From NCBI GenBank assembly GCA_016213985.1, contig JACRPJ010000011.1:1-7144 (forward strand): a stretch of 7,144 nucleotides of DNA. Direction: 5' to 3'. A model generated the notes under the pieces. It was not told where the DNA came from and searched no databases. It saw only the letters and a list, made by a program, of their open reading frames with translations. This document shows, in pieces, positions 1 to 7,144 of the stretch. The stretch's first letter is position 1. Each line of letters starts with the position of its first letter. The translations under genes were made by a program, and so were the position numbers. The DNA is from Candidatus Woesearchaeota archaeon (GTDB taxonomy: Archaea > Nanobdellota > Nanobdellia > Woesearchaeales > GW2011-AR9).

Positions 1-89
1 AAAGACCTGCACTGCACTTCTTTTCTGATGAAAAGACCTGCACTAGAAACAGACAGCCCTTGGCTCGAGTTCGAATCTCGATAGCGGCC
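1..89 (+). tRNA. tRNA, 3' part (class II-like), 5' part outside the window
   Basis: A T-arm is clear: stem 65-69 (TCGAG), 7-nt loop 70-76 (TTCGAAT) and stem 77-81 (CTCGA), followed by a 7-nt acceptor strand at 82-88 (TAGCGGC). A short arm just before it (GCC-CTT-GGC, 56-64) looks like a long variable arm, as in tRNA-Leu or tRNA-Ser. The matching 5' acceptor strand (GCCGCTA) is not in the window. I could not assign the anticodon, because 1-54 does not fold into an anticodon arm as it stands; introns may interrupt it. The base at discriminator position 89 would be C, which is odd for Leu or Ser. CCA is not encoded. The minus-strand gene next door ends only 3 bp away. Confidence 0.5.
14..44 (+). 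other. possible 31-nt BHB intron in the tRNA
   Basis: An 11-13 nt sequence (AAAGACCTGCACT) occurs at 1-13 and again at 32-44, exactly 31 nt apart. TGCA at 8-11 can pair with TGCA at 39-42, with 3-nt bulges at 12-14 and 43-45, which is the BHB geometry. The insert holds a CTTTTC/GAAAAG hairpin (20-25/30-35) like those in the short 16S introns downstream. The intron does not fall at the usual 37/38 site in any anticodon assignment I tried, so this is tentative. Confidence 0.3.
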
Positions 90-91
90 CT

Positions 92-403
92 TTATCCTTT
101 TTCTATTTCTTCGAGAACATCATCAAAAGTTTTCCTGCGGCTTACAGAAGGGTGAAAATAGAAAGGCGAACGGGACGCGTAATCTCCGATAACATAGAGA
201 ATCACAAATACACCACATCTTCTAGCCCCTTCAATATCTTCAAAAGCATATTGTCTGGCAAGTTCTTGGTTGCTTTCATATGGTTTTATTGGTTCATGGA
301 GAGTCCAGTCAGCAGATATTTTATGGCCCCTTGCCTGAAGTTCTTTGTAAAGGGCTCTAACTTCTTCTTTTCTATCGAATCTGGCGGCAATATAAAATTC
401 CAT
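92..403 (-). CDS. nucleoside 2-deoxyribosyltransferase-like protein with internal deletion
   Basis: The 103-aa protein starts MEFYIAARF and continues with EVRALYKELQARGH, SADWTLHEPIKPY and a segment ending EDIEGARRCGVFVIL. This is the N-terminal nucleotide-binding half of the nucleoside 2-deoxyribosyltransferase-like family. The C-terminus (YVIGDYASRSPFYFHPSV...FDDVLEEIEKG) is also typical. In the family, VF(I/V)L is normally followed by a stretch of about 25-30 residues containing G-x-x-x-E-L-G with the catalytic glutamate, before the V(Y)V(I/V)G strand. Here VFVIL joins YVIGDY directly, in frame, so the catalytic segment seems to be missing. The protein may be inactive or a binding module. 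The stop codon lies 3 bp from the tRNA end, and the gene is divergent from the 16S gene. The family call rests on recognised motifs; the deletion is an inference from expected family length. Confidence 0.75.
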   Translation of the reverse strand: MEFYIAARFDRKEEVRALYKELQARGHKISADWTLHEPIKPYESNQELARQYAFEDIEGARRCGVFVILYVIGDYASRSPFYFHPSVSRRKTFDDVLEEIEKG

Positions 404-687: not shown

Positions 688-851
688 ATTCCGGTTGATC
701 CTGCCGGAGGTCACCGCTATCCGAATACGGCTTAGCTATGCGAGTTCTGGGTTAAACCAGGGCGAACTGCTCAGTAACACGTAGTTAACATGCCCTTATG
801 CTTTGTCTAATCCCGGGAAACTGGGGCCGAGGACAAGATAGGCAATAGTTG

Positions 852-982
852 TTGGAATTCTACTCTTTTCTTTCAAAAAGAAAAGAGTACAGTATTGAAA
901 AGAAACGATATACTTAACCAATTGATCAAGTATCTTAGTTTTCTTGGGTACTGTAGCCTTCTTTTTTGAAAAGAAGGCTAGA
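852..982 (+). other. probable rRNA intron 1 (V2 region)
   Basis: 131 nt. TGGAAT occurs at both ends (853-858 and 984-989), and removal brings GCAATAG together with CTATTGC across a normal-sized V2 loop. BHB: TAGT 846-849 pairs with GCTA 977-980 (one G-U), with bulges 850-852 and 981-983. Inside are strong hairpins at about 862-889 and 954-980 and a TACAGTA/TACTGTA helix. Helices here vary in length, so a retained expansion segment is the alternative. Confidence 0.55.
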
Positions 983-1048
983 CTGGAATACTCTATTGCT
1001 CAATGTAAGGATTGGACTGCGGCTTATCAGGCTGAAGTGAGTGTAATG

Positions 1049-1156
1049 TAACCTTTTCTTCAAGAGAAAAGGTTAATCAAAAGAGGAGCCTAATTTTTCT
1101 TCGTTTCGACTCAGAAAAATTTACGGCTTCCATCATAGAAGAAAACGGTTTTATAG
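1049..1156 (+). other. rRNA intron 2 (E. coli about 265/266, helix 11)
   Basis: 108 nt. Outer exon helix AAGTGAGT/ACTCACTT (1035-1042/1158-1165) is perfect. Central helix GTAA 1043-1046 with TTAT 1151-1154 (one G-U). Bulges TG|T (1047-1049) and AG|T (1155-1157). The splice product GTGTAATG|TACTCAC matches consensus length. Its 5' arm AACCTTTTC can pair either with 1064-1074 or with the intron's own 3' end (1141-1150). Confidence 0.88.
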
Positions 1157-1206
1157 TACTCACTTACCGATAACGAGTACGGGCCTTGAGAGAGGAAGCC
1201 CGGAGA

Positions 1207-1233
1207 TAGGCAGAAAATAAAATGCCTTCCGAG
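1207..1233 (+). other. 27-nt rRNA mini-intron 3 (E. coli about 316/317)
   Basis: Splits CGGAGA|TGGATTCTGAGAC. Central helix CGGA 1201-1204 with TCCG 1228-1231 is perfect. Bulges GA|T (1205-1207) and AG|T (1232-1234). Inner stem AGGCA/TGCCT with a 10-nt loop. All BHB parts are present in 27 nt. Confidence 0.82.
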
Positions 1234-1299
1234 TGGATTCTGAGACATTAATCCAGGGTCTACGGACTGCAGCAAGCGCGAAAACTTCTCAATGCACGT

Positions 1300-1360
1300 A
1301 AGCTTTTCTTTCTGTAAATTCTGTTCAAAGAAAATCTTAAGCAAAAGAAAAGCTGTGTAT
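1300..1360 (+). other. 61-nt rRNA intron 4 (E. coli about 381/382)
   Basis: Inserted in a GNRA tetraloop: removal gives GCAC-GTAA-GTGT. Central helix GCAC 1294-1297 with GTGT 1355-1358 (one G-U). Bulges GT|A (1298-1300) and AT|A (1359-1361). Inner helix of 11 bp, 1301-1311 with 1344-1354. Confidence 0.82.
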
Positions 1361-1448
1361 AAGTGTGAAGAGGGAATTCGGAGTGATTTCACTTTTAGTG
1401 GAATCTTTTGTTTAGTTTAGAAAACTAAGCGAATAAGGGGTGGGTAAG

Positions 1449-2315
1449 AGAGCGGGAGTGTTTGAATTTAGTCCAGTGAAACAAATAATAACCATGGAAT
1501 ACAAGCTAACTGAACAGCATATCACAGAGCTGCTAGATGAGATAAATGGGATAAGGAGCTTTGATGAACTTATACCCATTTTATTTAAAGATTCTAGAAT
1601 TCTTGTGCTGTTTAGGTTACAAGCTTGTGAGGATAGAAGAGACTTTTCCAGAGTTCTTGGGAAGAGTCTTAATACCATAGCAAACCTCGAGAGGGGCAAT
1701 AAAAAGATAAAGACTTGGAAGAAGTGTAATGAATATGTTAAAAAACTTAAAAATAATTATAAGCTACACTTCAAAAAGGATGATATATTGGATAGCTATA
1801 GGATGTGGATAAGGAAAGATGCTGATAACAGGACAAACAGAGCAAAACAAATTGCATATATGGGAGGGGAAGCGGCAGCTAAACAACTTAGTGGCTCTGA
1901 AAGGTTTATCAGATCTCAAAAAGCAGGGTTACAGGCAGTGAAGTTTGGAGCAGGTGTGCATGGGCAAAAAGACAAATGGATGTCGTGGTCAAAGAAAGGT
2001 CTTAGAATAGCTGGCAGAAAGATGACTTTAGGTCCTTTCGGAGAAAGGATGTCCAATGAGCTGGAAGCCAACGTTGCACGAAGACTAATTGCTAACCTGA
2101 TTTTGTTGTAGACAATCTCATAATAGAATGTTGCCATTGGGAATCTTTAGAAAGATGGTTATATCCACGGAATAAATTTAATTTGTTTTTAAAGAGCGGT
2201 TTTAAATGTGTGCTAGTAACAAAAACTAAATGTAAAGGGTTTATAGAGAATCTACCAAAAGGTGTTATAGTTGTCTTTGAGGATGAATTGGATTCAAACG
2301 CTCCCATTCTACCAA
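1449..2315 (+). mobile_element. 867-nt rRNA intron 5 (E. coli 510/511) with a homing endonuclease gene
   Basis: Central helix GGTA 1443-1446 with TACC 2310-2313 is perfect. Bulges AG|A (1447-1449) and AA|A (2314-2316). Long inner helix 1450-1463 with 2296-2309, one mismatch. Removal gives GGGTAAG|ACGGGTGCCAGC. It encodes a frameshifted PD-(D/E)XK-type endonuclease (1494-2341). Confidence 0.92.
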
Positions 2316-2341
2316 ACGGGTGCCAGCCGCCATTTTTCTAG
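1494..2341 (+). pseudogene. HTH plus PD-(D/E)XK-like homing endonuclease, one-base frameshift
   Basis: Reading from ATG 1494 gives 205 aa to TAG 2109-2111. An upstream in-frame ATG at 1440 is in the exon and is unlikely. Residues about 37-70 look like a helix-turn-helix (SRVLGKSLNTIANLERG). Residues 117-190 are Gly/Ala/Lys-rich helical repeats (MGGEAAAKQLSGSE, KAGLQAVKFG, KKGLRIAGRKMT). The reading breaks at about 2097-2101: in the next frame, 2099-2341 continues with DFVVDNLIIECCHW, then PRNKFNLFLKSGFK and LPKGVIVVFEDEL. This is the expected C-terminal nuclease core (D...I-I-E-C) and shares its layout with the gene at 3036. One missing G (AACCTG[G]ATTTT) would restore NLDFVVDN. The shifted frame runs through the 3' exon and stops inside the next mini-intron. 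A sequencing error or programmed shift are alternatives. Nuclease assignment is inference from motifs. Confidence 0.78.
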
Positions 2342-2364
2342 TTTAAATACTAGGAGAACGGTAA
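2332..2364 (+). other. 33-nt rRNA mini-intron 6 in the 530 loop (E. coli 526/527)
   Basis: Splits GTGCCAGCCGCC|GCGGTAATAC, one of the most invariant rRNA sequences. Central helix GCCG 2326-2329 with CGGT 2359-2362 (one G-U). Bulges CC|A (2330-2332) and AA|G (2363-2365). Inner helix of 10 bp, 2333-2342 with 2349-2358, loop TTAAAT. The predicted cuts fall exactly where the universal sequence is restored. Confidence 0.92.
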
Positions 2365-2534
2365 GCGGTAATACCCGCGCCCCAAGTAGTGACCGCGTTT
2401 ATTGGGTTTAGAGAGTTCGTAGCCGGTTCTGTAAGTTCTTAGTGAAATACCATGGTTAACTATGGTGCGAGCTAGGGGTACTGCAGGGCTTGAGACTGGG
2501 AGAGGTCAAGAGTATTGCTAGGGTAAGGGTAAAA

Positions 2535-2622
2535 TTATACCCTCTTCTTTCGAGAAAGAAGAGCCTTATAACCCAGAAGAAAGGAAGTTACAAAAAATTT
2601 GGGTTAATTATGGATTTTACAA
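2535..2622 (+). other. 88-nt rRNA intron 7 in the 690 loop (E. coli about 696/697)
   Basis: Removal gives GGTAAAA|TCTTATAATCC. Central helix GTAA 2529-2532 with TTAC 2617-2620 is perfect. Bulges AA|T on both sides (2533-2535, 2621-2623). Inside is a 10-bp hairpin CTCTTCTTTC/GAAAGAAGAG (about 2542-2563), with a second purine-rich copy AGAAGAAAGGA downstream. Confidence 0.85.
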
Positions 2623-2648
2623 TCTTATAATCCTAGCGAGACTACCTG

Positions 2649-2696
2649 ACAGCTTGAGATTTTCCATTGGATTCTATTATCTCATGTTTGGGTAAA
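2649..2696 (+). other. 48-nt rRNA intron 8 (E. coli 722/723)
   Basis: Removal gives ACTACCTG|TGGCGAAGGCG. Central helix TACC 2643-2646 with GGTA 2691-2694 is perfect. Bulges TG|A (2647-2649) and AA|T (2695-2697). Inner helices CAG/TTG and TGAGAT/ATCTCA (2655-2660/2679-2684). Confidence 0.87.
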
Positions 2697-2767
2697 TGGC
2701 GAAGGCGCTTGACTGGAACAGATCTGACGGTGAGGGACGAAAGCTAGGGGAGCAAATGGGATTAGAT

Positions 2768-2841
2768 TAAGCCCTTTCTCTTTTTCTAAAAGAGAAAGTC
2801 CTTATGGGGAAAGAGAAAAGATTTTACAAGAGCTTATAAAA
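2768..2841 (+). other. 74-nt rRNA intron 9 in the 790 loop (E. coli 793/794)
   Basis: Splits ATTAGAT|ACCCCAGTAGTCC, an invariant block. Central helix TTA(G) 2762-2765 with (A)TAA 2836-2839 has one G-A mismatch. The inner helix AAGC/GCTT (2769-2772/2832-2835) starts right after the bulge. Contains CTTTCTCTTT/AAAGAGAAAG (about 2774-2798) followed by another purine-rich copy. Confidence 0.82.
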
Positions 2842-2942
2842 ACCCCAGTAGTCCTAGCTGTAAACGATGCCCACTGGTCGTGGGAAAGTTCAAGGGATTT
2901 TCCCATGTCGTAGGGAAACCGTTAAGTGGGCCACCTGGGGAG

Positions 2943-3001
2943 AACTCGGTTGTTTATAAGTATACTCTGCTAAATATTAAGCAGTGCAACCGAATCCCAA
3001 A
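2943..3001 (+). other. about 59-nt rRNA intron 10 (E. coli about 890/891)
   Basis: Removal gives CCTGGGGAG|TACGGCCGCAAG. An inner helix CGGTTG/CAACCG (2947-2952/2987-2992) and a CTGCT/AGCAG hairpin are clear. GGGA 2938-2941 can pair with TCCC 2995-2998, but that register would leave 1-2 extra nt in the exon, so the ends are uncertain by about 2 nt. Confidence 0.75.
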
Positions 3002-3019
3002 TACGGCCGCAAGACTGAA

Positions 3020-3824
3020 AGGTGAGAACTGGATTATGCAAAAAGAGGGACTTGATTCGCTAATGGAAATTTTGAGATCTGGGGTAGAAAAATCCACTTT
3101 AAAAAAAGATCTTCAAGAAAACCCGAGACTCATTCTTCCATTGAGACTATCTTTAGGATTAAGCCAAAAACAATTTATAGAGAAGACTGGCAGATCTTTG
3201 TCTCAGGTATCTTTAATAAGATACGAAAAAGGGATGAGAAAAACTGTTCCGTTTTCTAAAGCCGAAAGGATCGCAGATTTTATTGACTTATCCGAAATTA
3301 GGAGAGAAGATATCTGGACAAATTATAACAAATTTGAGAAAATGAGGAACGGTCACTTAACTCCTGAGAAAGCCAGGGATTTGAACAGGTTATGGCGTAA
3401 CAAGTTCACACAAGAAGATAGAGAAAACTGGGGAAGGAAAGGAGCTGAAATTACAAACAGTAAGCAAAAATTTACGGAGCAGGAAAAAAAGATAAAAAAC
3501 ATTTTAGATTTGTCACATACAGAATATATAACCCATAAAAAAATAAACACCAAAATATTATCGATGAATATAGATTTTGTGGTTTGTAAAAACTCAGTTC
3601 CGAAAATTTTCATAGAATGTACAAAAAGAAAGCATGATCTTCATATACTATTACAAGCCTATGCTTATAGAAGCAGGCTTCTGAAAGAAACTTATGAAGA
3701 TTCAAAAACAATTATAATACTTGGAAAAATCCCTCTTTTTGCGAAAAAAATATTTGAAAAAGAATTCGATTATGTCATAGAAAACAGCGAATTAGAAAAA
3801 CTAAATCTGGTTCTTGCACAGTAT
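3020..3824 (+). mobile_element. 805-nt rRNA intron 11 (E. coli 908/909) with a homing endonuclease gene
   Basis: Central helix ACTG 3014-3017 with CAGT 3819-3822 is perfect. Bulges AA|A (3018-3020) and AT|A (3823-3825). Inner helix 3022-3032 with 3807-3817. Outer AAG/CTT. Removal gives CTGAA|ACTTAAGGGAATTGG. Position 908 is a known intron site in 16S of thermophilic Crenarchaeota. Confidence 0.93.
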
Positions 3825-3830
3825 ACTTAA
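3036..3830 (+). CDS. HTH plus PD-(D/E)XK-like homing endonuclease (intron-encoded)
   Basis: 264 aa from ATG 3036. This start is chosen because it lies inside the intron and has GGTGA about 10 nt upstream; in-frame codons further 5' (to 2880) are 16S exon and intron 10. Residues about 35-66 form a helix-turn-helix (LSLGLSQKQFIEKTGRSLSQVSLIRYEKG). A Gly/Lys-rich linker (GRKGAEITNSKQKFTEQE) follows. Residues 176-197 (MNIDFVV...KIFIECTKRK) supply D180 and E194 of a probable PD-(D/E)XK core, with T196 where the family usually has Lys. A C-terminal α/β segment (TIIILGKIPLFAKKIFEKE) completes the fold. The layout matches the broken gene at 1494. It is expected to cut intronless 16S alleles at this site. 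The stop TAA lies in the 3' exon, so translation must use unspliced precursor or a separate transcript. Function is inferred; the family is unnamed. Confidence 0.78.
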   Translation: MQKEGLDSLMEILRSGVEKSTLKKDLQENPRLILPLRLSLGLSQKQFIEKTGRSLSQVSLIRYEKGMRKTVPFSKAERIADFIDLSEIRREDIWTNYNKFEKMRNGHLTPEKARDLNRLWRNKFTQEDRENWGRKGAEITNSKQKFTEQEKKIKNILDLSHTEYITHKKINTKILSMNIDFVVCKNSVPKIFIECTKRKHDLHILLQAYAYRSRLLKETYEDSKTIIILGKIPLFAKKIFEKEFDYVIENSELEKLNLVLAQYT

Positions 3831-3999
3831 GGGAATTGGCGGGGGAGCACACAAGGGGTGGAGGCTGCGGTTTAATTCGATTCAACACGAGGAACCTTAC
3901 TAGTGGCGACAGCAGAATGAAGGTCAGTCTAAGGGGCTTACCAGACACGCTGAGAAGTGCTGCATGGCCGTCGTCATTCCTTGAGGACATCTATGGTCA

Positions 4000-4060
4000 G
4001 CGGACATATTCTGTTTTTCCCTGCTTACGCAGGCCGTAAACTAAAAACAGATAAGTCCGC
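4000..4060 (+). promoter_or_regulatory. structured leader motif, copy 1
   Basis: Stem GCGGAC 4000-4005 with GTCCGC 4055-4060; conserved internal loop ATATTCT (4006-4012) facing AGATAAG (4049-4055); upper stem CTGTTTTT/AAAAACAG. It lies 16 nt before ATG 4077. The same layout with different stem sequences occurs at 4525-4605 and 6165-6229. Confidence 0.7.
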
Positions 4061-4076
4061 TTCCCTAAAAATAAAT

Positions 4077-4160
4077 ATGAAAATTAAAAATTTTCAGAAA
4101 TTAGAGAATATAAAAACGCAAATGCATTTGATCTTGAAATATCAAGTGGCCGCGCTTTAA
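4077..4160 (+). pseudogene. remnant of a LAGLIDADG homing endonuclease gene
   Basis: ATG 4077 opens with MKIKNFQ, identical to the first seven residues of the LAGLIDADG gene at 6242, then runs only to residue 27 (stop 4158-4160). No LAGLIDADG motif remains. The intron is 239 nt, against 729 nt for intron 19, so most of the gene body has been deleted while the leader, the start-codon hairpin and the splice structure were kept. Confidence 0.7.
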
Positions 4161-4227
4161 TGTTTTTTGAGTTAATTAGAGATTTTTCAATTAAATGTCC
4201 TCTTGGAACGATATAGTTCGTGCCGTG

Positions 4228-4276
4228 TAAACTTTTTAAGAAAAAGTTTAATCAAAAAATTAAAAAGTTTCGGTAC
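4228..4276 (+). other. 49-nt rRNA intron 13 (E. coli 1079/1080)
   Basis: Only 13 nt of exon separate it from intron 12. Central helix GCCG 4222-4225 with CGGT 4271-4274 (one G-U). Bulges TG|T (4226-4228) and AC|A (4275-4277). AAACTTTTT (4229-4237) can pair with either of two AAAAAGTTT copies (4241-4249 or 4262-4270). Removal gives GCCGTG|AGGTGTCGCGTTAAGTC. Confidence 0.88.
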
Positions 4277-4508
4277 AGGTGTCGCGTTAAGTCGCGTAAC
4301 GAACAAGACCCGTACCTTATGTTGCTAAGCCGAAAGGCCGCACACATAAGGGACTGCCCGCGCTAAGTGGGAGGAAGGAGCGGTCGACGGCAGGTCCGTA
4401 CGGCCTGAATCCGCTAGGCTACACGCGACCTACAATGGTTGGGACAATAGGATGTGACTCCGTAAGGGGGAACCAATCCCTAAACCCAATCTCAGTCCAG
4501 ATCGATTG

Positions 4509-5650
4509 ATGAAACGCCTCGGTCTAGTGAAGCAGACATATTCTCCTTTTGGATAGCGGAATATCGGAACGATGCTATCCCAAAGTAGATAAGCCTGCTT
4601 CACTAAAATTTAATCATGAAAACTGAAAATTTTCCTTTGAATTACAATCTTCAGAAAAACTTCAGAGTAAAATTTAAGGAAAATCAATCCAAACAGTTCT
4701 TTAGTTTAGTAAAAACTGAAACCGGGATAATCAATTGGAAAGAATTATACAACAGGTATGATATTAAATCAAGTACCTTTTCTGATTGGTTAAATGGCAA
4801 AACACCGCCAACATTAGAATTTGTGATTTCGTGTATTCGGTTGGCTAAATTAAGAGTGATTGATGTGGAAAACAAAATAGAAGACATCTATGATCTTAGA
4901 ACTGTCTATTGCAAATACCCAAAAAACGTAAAGAACAAAAGTGACGTTGGTGGCATTTTATCGAGTTTAAAGGGCTGCAAAAGTGCAGATGGCTCTACTC
5001 CCCTTAACCAAACTGCAGAGATTGATGTCTATGACAAGAGATTAGCACAACTTATTGCCATGACACTAACAGATGGTGGAATCAGTGTCTATGGCAAAAA
5101 CGGCAAACACTATGAAATCTTCTTTGTCCAGAAATATCCAGATCCGATTAAATTGTTTTCAGATATTATCAAACAACTCTTTGGTCTGCAAGTTACTATT
5201 AGAAAAAGAGTCTATAAAGAAAATACATGGTACAGTGGACACCTGACTAGCAAATTAGTTGTAAATCAATTACTTAAACTGCTTAAAACTAATGGAAAAC
5301 TTACACGAAACAAGAAGGTTCCACGATTTATCTTTGAGGAAAAATATCTGGCAAGAGAGTTTCTAAGAATTCTCTATGGATCTGAAGGATGTGTTTATAT
5401 AAAAGAAGACAGAAAGCCGGTAATAGAAATTGGTTGCAAACCTATAAATTTAAAAAAATCGTATAGAAGATTACTGCAACTTTTTGATATAGAATGCAAA
5501 ATCTATCCTACAAAGTTATCCATACTTAAAAAATCGTCAGTAAAAAGATTCGTCAAAGAAATCGGTTCTCTGAACTGTTTTCGTGTCGTTAGGGGGAAAC
5601 ACTGTGGTGAGAAGAAAGTTAAAGTTCTTAAAAATACGCTGTCTGTACTG
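4509..5650 (+). mobile_element. rRNA intron 14 (helix 42, E. coli about 1309) with a LAGLIDADG gene; ends unresolved
   Basis: 16S exon is clear up to GATCGATTG (4508) and again from AACTCGCCCTCGTGAAG (5654). No single BHB restores helix 42, whose 5' strand should read GAGGG to pair with CCCTC 5660-5664. A BHB does exist at 4508|4509 and 5590|5591 (CGAT 4503-4506 with GTCG 5585-5588), and would bring AGGGGG (5591-5596) into place as the missing strand. That requires a second small intron at about 5597-5653, for which I found no clean BHB. Confidence 0.75.
4525..4605 (+). promoter_or_regulatory. structured leader motif, copy 2
   Basis: Stem TAGTGAAGCAG 4525-4535 with CTGCTTCACTA 4595-4605 is perfect. 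Internal loop ATATTCT (4538-4544) faces AGATAAG (4587-4593). Upper stem CTTTTGGATAGC/GCTATCC-CAAAG. ATG 4616 lies 10 nt downstream. Confidence 0.72.
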
Positions 5651-5668
5651 CAGAACTCGCCCTCGTGA
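4616..5668 (+). CDS. LAGLIDADG homing endonuclease with N-terminal HTH
   Basis: 350 aa. Residues about 25-60 look like a helix-turn-helix (WKELYNRYDIKSSTFSDWLNG). The first LAGLIDADG helix is residues 143-154 (LAQLIAMTLTDG, acidic residue D153); the second is 249-258 (FLRILYGSEG, E257). Two motifs in one chain point to a monomeric enzyme that binds an asymmetric site, here the helix 42 region of 16S DNA. The start at 4616 follows the leader motif and opens with a GAAAA/TTTTC hairpin as in the gene at 6242; there is no Shine-Dalgarno sequence. The last 25 codons overlap either the 3' exon or a second intron, and TGA 5666-5668 is inside 16S exon. The length is normal for a two-motif enzyme. Family call is firm; target and activity are inferred. 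Confidence 0.88.
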   Translation: MKTENFPLNYNLQKNFRVKFKENQSKQFFSLVKTETGIINWKELYNRYDIKSSTFSDWLNGKTPPTLEFVISCIRLAKLRVIDVENKIEDIYDLRTVYCKYPKNVKNKSDVGGILSSLKGCKSADGSTPLNQTAEIDVYDKRLAQLIAMTLTDGGISVYGKNGKHYEIFFVQKYPDPIKLFSDIIKQLFGLQVTIRKRVYKENTWYSGHLTSKLVVNQLLKLLKTNGKLTRNKKVPRFIFEEKYLAREFLRILYGSEGCVYIKEDRKPVIEIGCKPINLKKSYRRLLQLFDIECKIYPTKLSILKKSSVKRFVKEIGSLNCFRVVRGKHCGEKKVKVLKNTLSVLQNSPS

Positions 5669-5683
5669 AGTCGAAATCCCTAG

Positions 5684-5717
5684 ATGATACTAGAAATCAG
5701 TTCTCGTATCAGAGGAA
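5684..5717 (+). other. 34-nt rRNA mini-intron 15 (E. coli 1347/1348)
   Basis: Splits CCCTAG|TAGTCGC. Bulges AG|A (5682-5684) and AA|T (5716-5718). Central helix CCCT 5678-5681 with GAGG 5712-5715 has one C-A mismatch and one G-U. Inner helix TGATAC/GTATCA (5685-5690/5706-5711) plus AGAA/TTCT. Confidence 0.8.
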
Positions 5718-5733
5718 TAGTCGCTTGTCATCA

Positions 5734-5799
5734 AATCTGAGGAAAGCATAATGATTAAGACCAGTGAATCGAAGTCTGAATCTTTTCTTTGGTGTGGAC
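5734..5799 (+). other. 66-nt rRNA intron 16 (E. coli about 1363/1364)
   Basis: Only 16 nt of exon separate it from intron 15. Central helix TCAT 5728-5731 with GTGG 5794-5797 (two G-U). Bulges CA|A (5732-5734) and AC|T (5798-5800). Inner helix 5735-5746 with 5782-5793, one T-T mismatch. Removal gives CGCTTGTCATCA|TCCAGCGGCGAATACG, the consensus length. Confidence 0.78.
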
Positions 5800-5924
5800 T
5801 CCAGCGGCGAATACGTTCCTGCTCCTTGCACACACTGCCCGTCAAGCCATCCGAGTGGATATTTGGCGAGCTTCTGGTTCTTGCCAGGATCAAGCCAAAT
5901 TTCTGTGAGGAGGGCTAAGTCGTA

Positions 5925-6061
5925 AGTTAGTGAGATGGGCAATAAGATGTTGGGTTCGAAAAACCAATAAATGACTTATTAGTGCATTCAATTACTCCTT
6001 AGAACACAATCTTTAAACAGGCAAAGGAAGTTATCCAGACTATCATCTCACAAATCGATAA
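5925..6061 (+). other. 137-nt rRNA intron 17 (E. coli 1499/1500)
   Basis: Central helix GTCG 5919-5922 with CGAT 6056-6059 (one G-U). Bulges TA|A (5923-5925) and AA|A (6060-6062). Inner helix includes GTGAGATG/CATCTCAC (5930-5937/6044-6051). Removal joins GTCGTA to ACAA. An internal arm AATAAG/CTTATT encloses TTGG-GTTCGAAAAA-CCAA, which resembles a tRNA T-arm. No ORF. Confidence 0.83.
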
Positions 6062-6063
6062 AC

Positions 6064-6107
6064 AAAATATCAGCAGAGGTAAACAAACTTCGCTGATGTT
6101 TGACGAA
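6064..6107 (+). other. 44-nt rRNA intron 18 (E. coli 1501/1502), after a 2-nt exon
   Basis: Removal of introns 17 and 18 gives GTCGTA|AC|AAGGTAGCC, the exact consensus. Central helix CGT(A) 5921-5924 with (G)ACG 6102-6105 has one A-G mismatch and forms only after intron 17 is gone. Bulges AC|A (6062-6064) and AA|A (6106-6108). The inner helix of 10 bp (6065-6074 with 6092-6101) starts right at the bulge. Confidence 0.78.
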
Positions 6108-6164
6108 AAGGTAGCCCTACGGGAACACGGGGTTGCCGCAAAGTTTGAAGAAGGAGAGCATAAT

Positions 6165-6229
6165 GGCTCGGCGTTCTATATTCTTCATTTCGGTCTTCTG
6201 ACACGAAACGCAGATATGAACGCCTCGCC
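6165..6229 (+). promoter_or_regulatory. structured leader motif, copy 3
   Basis: Stem GGCGTTC 6170-6176 with GAACGCC 6218-6224, extended by GGC/GCC across a TC/TC loop. Internal loop ATATTCT (6178-6184) faces AGATAT (6212-6217). Upper stem CATTTCG/CGAAACG, one mismatch. ATG 6242 is 12 nt downstream. Confidence 0.7.
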
Positions 6230-6241
6230 TAAATTCCAACC

Positions 6242-6838
6242 ATGAAAATTAAAAATTTTCAATCAAAGATTGGTGGCGAAATTTATTATCTTGTTGGCGC
6301 CTTAGGCGATGGCTGTCTTTCAACTGAATGGACAGTTGTTTACATCCAGAAATGTAAAGAGTGGCTAACAGAAGTAATAATACCACTACTGAACAAATGC
6401 TTTAGCAAAAACTATAAGCCGGAGAATTTGCGTTGGCAAGATGGTGCATGGAGGTTAAAATTCAAAAGCAGAGAAATATGGGAAACCCTAAGCAAATTAA
6501 AGAATCAGATGCCTCCGAATGCAAAAGCAAGGCAATTTTACATTCGGGCTTATTGGGATGCTGAAGGCAGTTGTTCTGTAAATGAAAGGGCGAAGAAAAA
6601 GCCATTCATAAACTTTACACAAAAGAAGAAAGCATCGCTCGATAATCTAAAGATAATGATTAACGGTTTTGGCATCAAAACAGGCGAAGTCCGGCTATCT
6701 GATCCAAAGAAACAAATGTGGCGTTTATGGATAGAAAATCAACGTGGTATAAAAAGATTTTGCCACGTAATTGGTTCTTCTCATCCAGAAAAGAGGATTA
6801 AATTAACAGATTTAAACGATCTCCTTCAAACTCGGTAA
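6242..6838 (+). CDS. LAGLIDADG homing endonuclease (intron-encoded)
   Basis: 198 aa with two LAGLIDADG helices: residues 15-24 (YYLVGALGDG, acidic D23) and 99-109 (FYIRAYWDAEG, with D106 and E108). The spacing of about 80 residues and total length fit a compact monomeric two-domain homing endonuclease. There is no extra DNA-binding domain, unlike the gene at 4616. ATG 6242 is chosen because it follows the leader motif and opens with the same MKIKNFQ and the same GAAAATT-AAA-AATTTTC hairpin as the remnant at 4077. TAA 6836-6838 lies inside the intron, 17 nt before the 3' splice site. It would target the 3' end of 16S DNA, at a site that translation and methylation make invariant. Family call is firm; activity is inferred. 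Confidence 0.9.
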   Translation: MKIKNFQSKIGGEIYYLVGALGDGCLSTEWTVVYIQKCKEWLTEVIIPLLNKCFSKNYKPENLRWQDGAWRLKFKSREIWETLSKLKNQMPPNAKARQFYIRAYWDAEGSCSVNERAKKKPFINFTQKKKASLDNLKIMINGFGIKTGEVRLSDPKKQMWRLWIENQRGIKRFCHVIGSSHPEKRIKLTDLNDLLQTR

Positions 6839-6877
6839 AGGACACCCTGTCCTAAGTGGGGCTGGATCACCTCCTTA

Positions 6878-7091
6878 TATATTTATTTCAATAGAACATC
6901 AGTAGGTTGAAACTGAAACTATGGCGGACATAGGTCTTATCCAATTTGTTAGGACCTATGTAGTCCCTTTAGATCAGTTTCGGCCTGTCAAAGGGTCAAA
7001 AATCTACAGGTCCTTTTATATACATCTATACTCAAAACTTTACAGTGTGCATAGGCAAAACCCAAAACTTGCCAAAATGCATAGAGTTAAG
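6878..7091 (+). other. 16S-tRNA spacer with hairpins
   Basis: Besides the right arm of the 16S processing stem, it holds a long imperfect hairpin (AAACTG 6910-6915 with CAGTTT 6975-6980; CATAGGTC 6929-6936 with GACCTATG 6953-6960) and a second one (TGCAT-A-GGCAA 7048-7058 with TTGCC-AAA-ATGCA 7069-7081). I see no credible coding region; the open frame at 6921-7109 has no family features and runs into the tRNA. Confidence 0.6.
6883..6914 (+). repeat. right arm of the pre-16S processing stem
   Basis: TTATTTCAATA (6883-6893) and GGTTGAAACT (6905-6914) pair with 644-654 and 624-632 in the leader. Together they close a loop around the whole 16S gene. Confidence 0.7.
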
Positions 7092-7103
7092 GGGCCTGTA
7101 GAT
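7002..7103 (+). repeat. 15-bp inverted repeat covering the tRNA 5' end
   Basis: 7002-7016 (ATCTACAGGTCCTTT) pairs with 7089-7103 (AAGGGGCCTGTAGAT) with two G-U pairs. The right arm includes the acceptor strand and part of the D-arm of the tRNA. The hairpin at 7048-7081 sits in the loop. Confidence 0.6.
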
Positions 7104-7144
7104 CAATAGGAGGTCGGAACCGATTCGAAAATCGGTTTCCGTCT
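7092..7144 (+). tRNA. tRNA 5' half, cut by the window end
   Basis: GGGCCTG (7092-7098, acceptor) is followed by TA (positions 8, 9) and a D-arm GATC-AATAGGA-GGTC (7101-7115) with the GG of a D-loop. The start resembles archaeal tRNA-Ala, the tRNA usual in archaeal 16S-23S spacers. What follows is an 8-bp helix (GAACCGAT/ATCGGTTT, 7117-7138) with a TCGAAA loop and not a normal 7-nt anticodon loop, so an anticodon-loop intron is likely. Identity cannot be settled here. Confidence 0.55.

What the first reader, a model, noticed from the sequence alone, without database searches (positions are those of the whole stretch)
688..6877. A single 16S rRNA gene split by about 19 BHB introns
About 4.7 kb of intron sits in about 1.45 kb of rRNA. 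In at least 14 cases, the point that restores the 16S consensus also gives a 4-bp exon-intron helix with 3-nt bulges on both sides, cut between nt 2 and 3 of each bulge. Two independent criteria thus give the same base. Introns in 16S are known in thermophilic Crenarchaeota, but usually only a few per gene; this density is exceptional as far as I know.
Basis: partly seen in the sequence, partly recalled or inferred. Interest (0 to 1): 0.95.

Follow-up and report, generated by a model that had tools for sequence, protein, structure and literature searches.

The report
Ribosomal RNA gene with nineteen introns
A 16S ribosomal RNA gene from an uncultured archaeon, which groups with the Aenigmatarchaeota, is cut into 20 pieces by 19 inserts that are predicted to be spliced out of the RNA by the tRNA-splicing machinery, and related archaea carry up to about 20 such inserts, so standard 16S surveys would likely miss or discard them.

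Summary
Window 688-6877 is one 16S rRNA gene: 1,450 nt of rRNA in 20 exons (shortest 10 nt) and 4,740 nt in 19 inserts. At the chosen junctions 15 of 19 inserts form the full bulge-helix-bulge (BHB) helix, against 0.63 expected (maximum 5 in 2,000 shuffles). With junctions set by alignment alone it is 12 of 19, against 0.58. The spliced product forms 381 of 418 Rfam consensus pairs (91%); random change to the same divergence gives 65%. So it looks like a working gene. In the 16S tree it falls inside Aenigmatarchaeota, so the contig is probably misbinned. Other MAGs of that phylum, taken together, have introns at 17 of the 19 sites within 2 nt. The density is extreme but not unique: in 70 full-length genes the median is 4 and the maximum 21. 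Extra findings: a second class of intron nuclease (HTH plus a predicted PD-(D/E)XK fold), a LAGLIDADG frame that spans two introns and the 10-nt micro-exon between them, and a shared leader that suggests introns moved between sites. No RNA evidence was available; splicing is inferred.

The parts
688..6877 (+). 16S rRNA gene, 20 exons (1,450 nt) and 19 introns (4,740 nt)
   Evidence: Spliced profile alignment and BHB; unspliced archaeal Rfam match only 326.6 bits
852..982 (+). intron 1, site 192 (E. coli number of the nt before), 131 nt; edges uncertain, alternative 858-988
   Evidence: helix 4/4, one inner pair
1049..1156 (+). intron 2, site 265, 108 nt
   Evidence: helix 4/4, outer 8, inner 4
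1207..1233 (+). intron 3, site 315, 27 nt; site also used in L001 (C65)
   Evidence: helix 4/4, inner 5
1300..1360 (+). intron 4, site 381, 61 nt
   Evidence: helix 4/4, inner 11
1449..2315 (+). intron 5, site 510, 867 nt, with a broken HTH-nuclease gene
   Evidence: helix 4/4, inner 3
1494..2111 (+). N-terminal part (205 aa) of a broken HTH-nuclease gene; the C-terminal part lies in another frame at 2099-2341 and runs into the 16S exon
   Evidence: 49% to P0010 (299 aa), and 54% for the second part
2332..2364 (+). intron 6, site 526, 33 nt, inside the 515-533 region
   Evidence: helix 4/4, inner 10
2535..2622 (+). intron 7, site 696, 88 nt
   Evidence: helix 4/4, no inner pairs; site used in 20 of 75 Aenigmatarchaeota loci
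2649..2696 (+). intron 8, site 722, 48 nt
   Evidence: helix 4/4, inner 3
2768..2841 (+). intron 9, site 793, 74 nt
   Evidence: helix 3/4, inner 4; site used in 22 of 75 loci
2943..3001 (+). intron 10, site 890, 59 nt
   Evidence: helix 3/4, one inner pair; site used in 3 of 75 loci and in L001
3020..3824 (+). intron 11, site 908, 805 nt, with HTH-nuclease gene
   Evidence: helix 4/4, no inner pairs; homologous gene at the same site in L088 and L124
3036..3830 (+). 264-aa HTH + PD-(D/E)XK-like nuclease (candidate homing endonuclease); its stop codon lies in the 16S exon
   Evidence: Pfam HTH_3, homologues P0001-P0005, fold matches
3976..4214 (+). intron 12, site 1066, 239 nt, with leader hairpin and what looks like a remnant of a homing-nuclease start
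   Evidence: helix 4/4, inner 4; leader
4228..4276 (+). intron 13, site 1079, 49 nt
   Evidence: helix 4/4, inner 11
4505..4970 (+). intron 14, site 1309, 466 nt
   Evidence: helix 4/4, outer 6, inner 9
4971..4980 (+). 10-nt micro-exon between introns 14 and 15
   Evidence: profile alignment placed an exon here at two of three insert penalties; flanking BHBs 4/4
4981..5655 (+). intron 15, site 1319, 675 nt
   Evidence: helix 4/4, inner 12
4616..5668 (+). 350-aa LAGLIDADG gene that starts in intron 14, crosses the micro-exon and intron 15, and ends in the next exon
   Evidence: Pfam LAGLIDADG_3 E 7.7e-11; P0007 60%
5684..5717 (+). intron 16, site 1347, 34 nt
   Evidence: helix 3/4, inner 6
5734..5799 (+). 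intron 17, site 1363, 66 nt
   Evidence: helix 4/4, inner 3; site used in 32 of 75 loci
5927..6107 (+). intron 18, site 1501, 181 nt; edges uncertain, alternatives 5923-6103 and 5925-6106
   Evidence: helix 3/4, no inner pairs
6127..6855 (+). intron 19, site 1520, 729 nt
   Evidence: helix 4/4, inner 6
6242..6838 (+). 198-aa LAGLIDADG gene
   Evidence: Pfam LAGLIDADG_3 E 4.1e-11; 45% to the site-1513 gene of L150
641..655 (+). 5' arm of the predicted pre-16S processing stem, pairs with 6882-6896
   Evidence: 15-bp pairing in a fold of the joined flanks
6882..6896 (+). 3' arm of the predicted pre-16S processing stem

Best explanation
The window holds a complete 16S rRNA gene whose 1,450 nt of rRNA are interrupted by 19 inserts (4,740 nt) that are predicted to be bulge-helix-bulge introns, cut from the precursor RNA by the tRNA-splicing endonuclease and likely rejoined by the ligase RtcB. 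Shown by sequence: exons that align to 16S end to end, the BHB helix at most junctions, restored secondary structure, and the same insertion sites in independent genomes. Inferred: splicing, the enzymes that do it, and mobility. Large introns carry homing-nuclease genes of two classes (LAGLIDADG, and HTH plus a predicted PD-(D/E)XK fold). These would cut intron-free 16S genes and so copy the intron into them by repair. Short introns are probably decayed remnants that kept only the BHB. A leader and gene start shared by introns at different sites suggests that introns also jump to new sites in the gene, which would explain how they piled up. The gene groups within Aenigmatarchaeota, not with the genus of the bin that holds the contig.
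For: Junction statistics: 15 of 19 full helices against 0.63 expected; 12 of 19 with alignment-only junctions against 0.58. A BHB-aware alignment with a partly different profile recovered 17 of the 19 introns with the same edges, including the micro-exon. Function: 381 of 418 consensus pairs formed; against relative L112, 62 pairs changed on both sides and still pair, 29 changed on one side, 17 broken; a neutral control gives a mean of 8.9 and a maximum of 17 double changes. Independence: 17 of 19 sites recur within 2 nt among 75 other Aenigmatarchaeota loci; 328 of 345 introns in 70 full-length genes are BHB-supported. A named MAG (L088, JACPZZ010000028.1) has the homologous nuclease intron at site 908 in its own multi-intron 16S. 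Machinery: splicing endonuclease family PF01974 in 14 of 15 and RtcB in 11 of 15 intron-rich relatives. A predicted processing stem flanks the gene.
Against: No RNA data. Four of 19 introns have only 3 of 4 helix pairs; introns 7 and 11 have 4/4 but no inner pairs, and intron 1 has one. Edges of introns 1 and 18 are uncertain. RtcB was not found in 4 of 15 relatives, 5 of the 11 genomes with RtcB have it with stop codons inside (some perhaps introns, see Noticed in passing), and the endonuclease was not found in 1 of 15 (MAGs, incomplete). The window's own host genome is not identified, so its enzymes could not be checked. The window is one short contig (7,144 nt).
Confidence: 0.92

Rival explanations
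1. The inserts are cut out but the pieces are not joined, so the ribosome carries a 16S in fragments.
For: No RNA evidence of ligation; RtcB not found in 4 of 15 intron-rich relatives. Fragmented rRNAs are known in other organisms (recalled).
Against: BHB geometry fits the splice-and-ligate pathway; RtcB matches in 11 of 15 relatives; exons of 10, 13, 16, 16, 18 and 19 nt would hardly stay in place unjoined, and one cut lies in the 530 region (site 526).
Confidence: 0.05
2. The gene is a degenerate or chimeric pseudogene, or an assembly artefact.
For: It sits on a short contig in a 59% complete bin that holds a second, different 16S; the nuclease gene of intron 5 is broken.
Against: 91% of consensus pairs are kept, with 62 doubly compensated pairs; a processing stem is predicted; near relatives of the intron-11 gene exist on other contigs (P0001, 90%, 4 contigs); same sites in independent genomes.
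Confidence: 0.02
3. The inserts are self-splicing group I introns or other ribozymes.
For: Group I introns with homing genes are reported in archaeal rRNA genes, some beside BHB introns in one gene (PMC6125680, passages seen).
Against: No intron family match in the window at E up to 1 in Rfam; 12 of 19 inserts are shorter than 140 nt, too short for a group I core (recalled); junctions show BHB.
Confidence: 0.01
4. The contig does belong to the bin's own lineage, and its 16S is only very divergent.
For: The contig is filed in that bin, and the bin has two such 16S contigs.
Against: Tree: the window groups with L137, L122 and L112 of the Aenigmatarchaeota set, support 0.99, and the bin's second 16S falls in another part of the same set. 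The 16S of the same-genus genome G002 sits in the other phylum and is 70 to 77% identical, depending on the alignment.
Confidence: 0.06

Closest known systems
BHB introns in 16S rRNA genes of Thermoproteales and other archaea (Jay and Inskeep 2015, PMC4496867)
   Same: BHB at junctions, insertion in conserved 16S regions, mix of nuclease-coding and short hairpin introns, LAGLIDADG genes; sites 722 and 908 are shared
   Different: That survey lists 13 sites for the archaeal 16S introns it collected; 17 of the 19 sites here are not on its list. The host phylum differs, there are 19 introns in one gene, and there is a second nuclease class
Introns in archaeal rRNA genes, DPANN included (Nawrocki et al. 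2018, PMC6125680)
   Same: rRNA introns in small-genome archaea, BHB introns among them, with homing genes
   Different: That work is about group I introns, 36 of 39 in 23S; no intron family of Rfam is matched here
LAGLIDADG homing endonucleases of archaeal introns
   Same: Two genes match LAGLIDADG_3
   Different: One gene runs through two introns, a 10-nt exon and into the next exon
PD-(D/E)XK and EDxHD homing endonucleases (I-Ssp6803I, I-Bth0305I; functions recalled)
   Different: XRE-like HTH at the N terminus, located in archaeal BHB introns

Membership tests
Archaeal BHB rRNA intron | Removal restores a full-length, well-paired rRNA | tested here: met
   1,450-nt product; 381 of 418 consensus pairs, model positions 1-1419 of 1,478
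Archaeal BHB rRNA intron | 4-bp helix between two 3-nt bulges at the junction | tested here: met
   15 of 19 with 4/4, 4 of 19 with 3/4; null mean 0.63 full helices
Archaeal BHB rRNA intron | Splicing endonuclease and ligase encoded by the host | tested here: inconclusive
   Relatives: PF01974 in 14 of 15, RtcB in 11 of 15; the window's own genome is unknown
Archaeal BHB rRNA intron | RNA shows excision and ligation | not testable with these tools
   No transcript data at hand
Group I intron | Catalytic core found by covariance model | tested here: not met
   No intron family match in Rfam at E up to 1
LAGLIDADG homing endonuclease (ORFs 4616-5668, 6242-6838) | LAGLIDADG domain above curated cut-off | tested here: met
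   42.5 and 43.4 bits, cut-off 22.5
PD-(D/E)XK homing endonuclease (ORF 3036-3830) | PD-(D/E)XK fold | tested here: inconclusive
PD-(D/E)XK homing endonuclease (ORF 3036-3830) | Cuts the intron-free allele | not testable with these tools
   Needs purified protein
Aenigmatarchaeota | 16S groups inside the phylum | tested here: met
   FastTree of 112 sequences; clade with L137, L122, L112, support 0.99

The most novel reading that the evidence does not exclude
Aenigmatarchaeota have the most intron-dense rRNA genes known. Mobile BHB introns invade, jump between sites within one 16S gene and decay in place. They are driven by two unrelated homing-nuclease classes, one of them new to archaeal introns. 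In the extreme form a single nuclease gene is read through two introns and the 10-nt piece of rRNA between them, so the rRNA exon is at once ribosome and protein-coding sequence, and the same RNA must choose between becoming ribosome and making the nuclease.
Probability: 0.5. Interest if true: 0.92.

Novelty: new variant of a known kind. Interest (0 to 1): 0.85.

Why it matters
A gene that every cell needs would have to lose three quarters of its transcript in 19 separate cuts and joins. That makes it a test of how much splicing a ribosome gene can bear without a spliceosome. It points to a phylum-wide intron load (only 5 of 70 full-length Aenigmatarchaeota genes had no intron of 26 nt or more). 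This could make these archaea hard to see: inserts lie in or near common primer regions (sites 526, 793, 908, 1501; primer places recalled), and the archaeal Rfam model scores the window at 326 bits, where four relatives with no intron called score 1,327 to 1,519. It also offers a natural series for intron birth and decay: intact, broken and remnant nuclease genes in one gene, with related introns at different sites.

Tried and rejected
Single-reference spliced alignments found the inserts but placed several edges badly; five references were used in the wrong orientation, and one of them (L011) still. A profile of 12 relatives was better. In it I treated 4505-5653 as one intron and found no full helix in the top rows; the full helix appears if a 10-nt exon at 4971-4980 is allowed, as the profile alignment had suggested. 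The BHB-aware alignment split intron 1 into two; I rejected that because the exon it implied does not match relatives. Group I introns: no match. tRNA scan of the window: none. The viral-contig scan found no relative of the intron-11 nuclease. A looser pattern for the leader hairpin gave 17 hits against 13.1 in shuffles, and a first stem-based scan 4 hits against 1, so only the strict pattern (7 hits against 2.0) is used. RNAalifold on four leaders found no strong consensus structure. Literature: in the listings of searches (open-licence PMC only) I saw no paper on multi-intron Aenigmatarchaeota 16S; the listed papers were not opened apart from two. PMC4496867 was read in parts 1 and 2 of 4, PMC6125680 by passages; PMC11270868 (insertions in rRNA genes of CPR bacteria) was seen only as a search listing.
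Full report
What is there. The window is a whole contig (7,144 nt) of a 635-kb, 59% complete bin. Rfam finds 16S in it only in pieces: 326.6 bits for the archaeal model, plus a separate match of the 5' part to another SSU model. A spliced alignment to a profile of 12 related 16S genes runs through from 688 to 6875 and needs 18 to 21 inserts, depending on the insert penalty. After adding the BHB rule the best set has 19 introns, 27 to 867 nt long, in 1,450 nt of rRNA. Exons range from 10 to 228 nt, and G+C is 52% in exons and 35% in introns. Sites, as the E. coli nucleotide before the insert, are 192, 265, 315, 381, 510, 526, 696, 722, 793, 890, 908, 1066, 1079, 1309, 1319, 1347, 1363, 1501 and 1520.

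Is it more than chance. With the final junctions the four-pair helix between exon and intron is complete in 15 of 19 and has three pairs in the other four. Twelve of the 15 also have at least three inner pairs. In 2,000 dinucleotide shuffles of the introns the mean number of full helices is 0.63 and the maximum 5. Sliding all junctions by 1 to 8 nt gives 0 to 2 of 19. Because some junctions were picked with the help of this rule, I repeated the count with junctions from the alignment alone: 12 of 19, null mean 0.58, maximum 5 in 1,000. Introns 1 and 18 have uncertain edges, and the BHB at intron 10 was not scored by the automatic method.

Is the product a working rRNA. I took the base pairs of the Rfam archaeal model as aligned to the intron-free relative L090 (model positions 1-1419 of 1,478, so the last part of helix 44 and helix 45 are not covered). 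The spliced window forms 381 of 418 testable pairs (91.1%). Aenigmatarchaeota rows range from 89 to 96% (median 93%). Sliding partners gives 37 to 45%. Random change of relative L112 to the same number of differences gives a mean of 65% (maximum 70%, 500 runs). Against L112, 62 pairs have changed on both sides and still pair, 29 changed on one side and 17 are broken; the control mean for double changes is 8.9 and the maximum 17. A 15-bp stem (641-655 with 6882-6896) and an outer stem are predicted around the gene, as in archaeal pre-16S processing. This speaks against a pseudogene.

Whose gene it is. A 969-nt piece of the spliced 16S matched 236 of 371 genomes of the bin's own phylum; the listed matches have at most 78% identity, except for the window itself. 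A protein search led to a named Aenigmatarchaeota MAG (JACPZZ010000028.1, L088). It encodes a 44% identical nuclease inside its own 16S gene, at the same site 908, and that gene has 10 to 14 inserts depending on the method. A tree of 112 sequences puts the window in a clade with L137, L122 and L112 of that phylum (support 0.99). The other 16S contig of the bin (C65, L001) falls elsewhere in the same phylum. The 16S of a genome of the bin's own genus (G002) lies in the other group. Both contigs are probably misbinned.

How unusual it is. Of 156 Aenigmatarchaeota genomes searched, 86 gave a 16S match; I examined one locus from each of 75 of these. The other 11 had partial matches and were not fetched; the 70 without a match may include heavily interrupted genes. 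Of the 75, 70 were full-length. They carry a mean of 4.9 and a median of 4 introns of at least 26 nt. Five have none, ten have 10 or more, and the maximum is 21 (L122, 18 of them BHB-supported). Of 345 introns in the 70, 328 are BHB-supported; over all 75 loci there are 89 distinct sites. The window is second by number and first by intron length (4,740 nt; next 4,424 in L127). Seventeen of its 19 sites recur within 2 nt; sites 192 and 1309 do not. In the bin's own phylum the loci examined have up to 6 inserts (not an even sample).

The passengers. Five of the introns (5, 11, 14, 15, 19) carry nuclease genes or parts of them, and intron 12 what looks like a remnant. Two genes are LAGLIDADG. Two (introns 5 and 11) belong to another family: an XRE-like HTH followed by a domain predicted to have the PD-(D/E)XK fold. 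The fold call is moderate: the best rows are restriction enzymes and related nucleases, but unrelated response regulators reach nearly the same Z. The intron-5 gene is broken: a 299-aa relative (P0010) covers both pieces. In the census set with the window and C65 there are 63 introns of 380 nt or more, and 60 hold an open frame of at least 100 aa. I scanned 58 frames with Pfam (two window pieces of one gene were merged and one antisense frame dropped): 43 match LAGLIDADG_3 at E up to 0.01. Ten of the 60 frames belong to the HTH-nuclease family by an iterated profile, at sites 510, 908, 946, 1197 and 1363; the intron-5 gene joined only in the third round. I recall no earlier report of such a nuclease in archaeal BHB introns; searches showed none in their listings, but they were narrow.

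The micro-exon. Introns 14 and 15 are separated by 10 nt of rRNA (4971-4980), and both have complete BHBs with inner helices of 9 and 12 pairs. The LAGLIDADG gene starts in intron 14, runs through the micro-exon and intron 15, and stops in the next exon (4616-5668). A 60% relative, P0007, keeps the residues read from the micro-exon and the last residues read from the next exon. So the gene can only be read whole from unspliced RNA (inference). A single cut would then likely copy both introns at once, as reported for sites 1205 and 1213 in Pyrobaculum (PMC4496867, part 1).

How they may have multiplied. Introns 12, 14 and 19 share a leader (ATATTCT ... AGATA hairpin) and a gene start (ATGAAAATTAAAAATTTT or close to it). 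The strict leader pattern has seven hits in the loci, against 2.0 on average in shuffles. Five of the seven are followed by this gene start or a close form: the three window introns, site 1347 in L127 and site 1513 in L150. The sixth, in C65, has a more distant start, and the seventh lies outside 16S and has none. The simplest reading is that one intron type moved between sites. The intron-19 gene is 45% identical to the site-1513 gene of L150. This is inference from sequence.

Machinery. Among 15 Aenigmatarchaeota MAGs with interrupted 16S genes, the splicing endonuclease family is found in 14 and RtcB in 11; in five of these 11 genomes the RtcB match contains stop codons.

Verdict. It is a new variant of a known kind (archaeal BHB rRNA introns): new in host phylum, number, most sites, one nuclease class and the gene across the micro-exon, as far as the papers and listings seen here go. 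The claim that this gene is exceptional in density holds against the published survey that I read in part, but not against its own phylum. Splicing is inferred until RNA is seen.

Noticed in passing
L181 727-756 (genome G393); L183 minus strand near 2793 (genome G501): rtcB, the gene for the splicing ligase, has inserts of about 30 nt with stop codons at conserved motifs. The G393 insert forms a full BHB with 8 inner pairs, and leaving it out restores GGIGYDINCG; the G501 insert gave no convincing full BHB in the automatic scan. The ligase may itself need splicing to be made.
   Followed up: partly
L001 (G000:C65) 1476-4825: A second Aenigmatarchaeota 16S in the same bin, with introns at sites 315, 793 and 890 and probably a further one near 1363 carrying a homing gene, at or close to the contig end.
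   Followed up: partly
L177 (G513), L178 (G507), L179 (G501): The splicing endonuclease family lies in open frames of 393-404 aa in these three genomes (G501 also has one of 202 aa), against 171-236 aa in the others. A larger, broader-acting form might go with high intron load.
   Followed up: no
window 2316-2341, 3825-3830, 5656-5668: Three nuclease reading frames run into the next 16S exon and take their last residues and, in two cases (3828-3830 and 5666-5668), their stop codon from rRNA sequence. Some relatives keep these ends (P0001 and P0003, P0007, P0010).
   Followed up: partly
window 1-91 and about 7090-7144: Stretches that look like parts of tRNAs at both edges of the contig (by eye); ARAGORN finds no complete tRNA. 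They may be tRNAs with introns or cut by the contig ends.
   Followed up: no
window 92-403, minus strand: A 103-aa open frame without a Pfam match at E up to 1.
   Followed up: no
G448:C30 24002-26746: RtcB match split in two within one 984-aa open frame, which suggests an intein.
   Followed up: no
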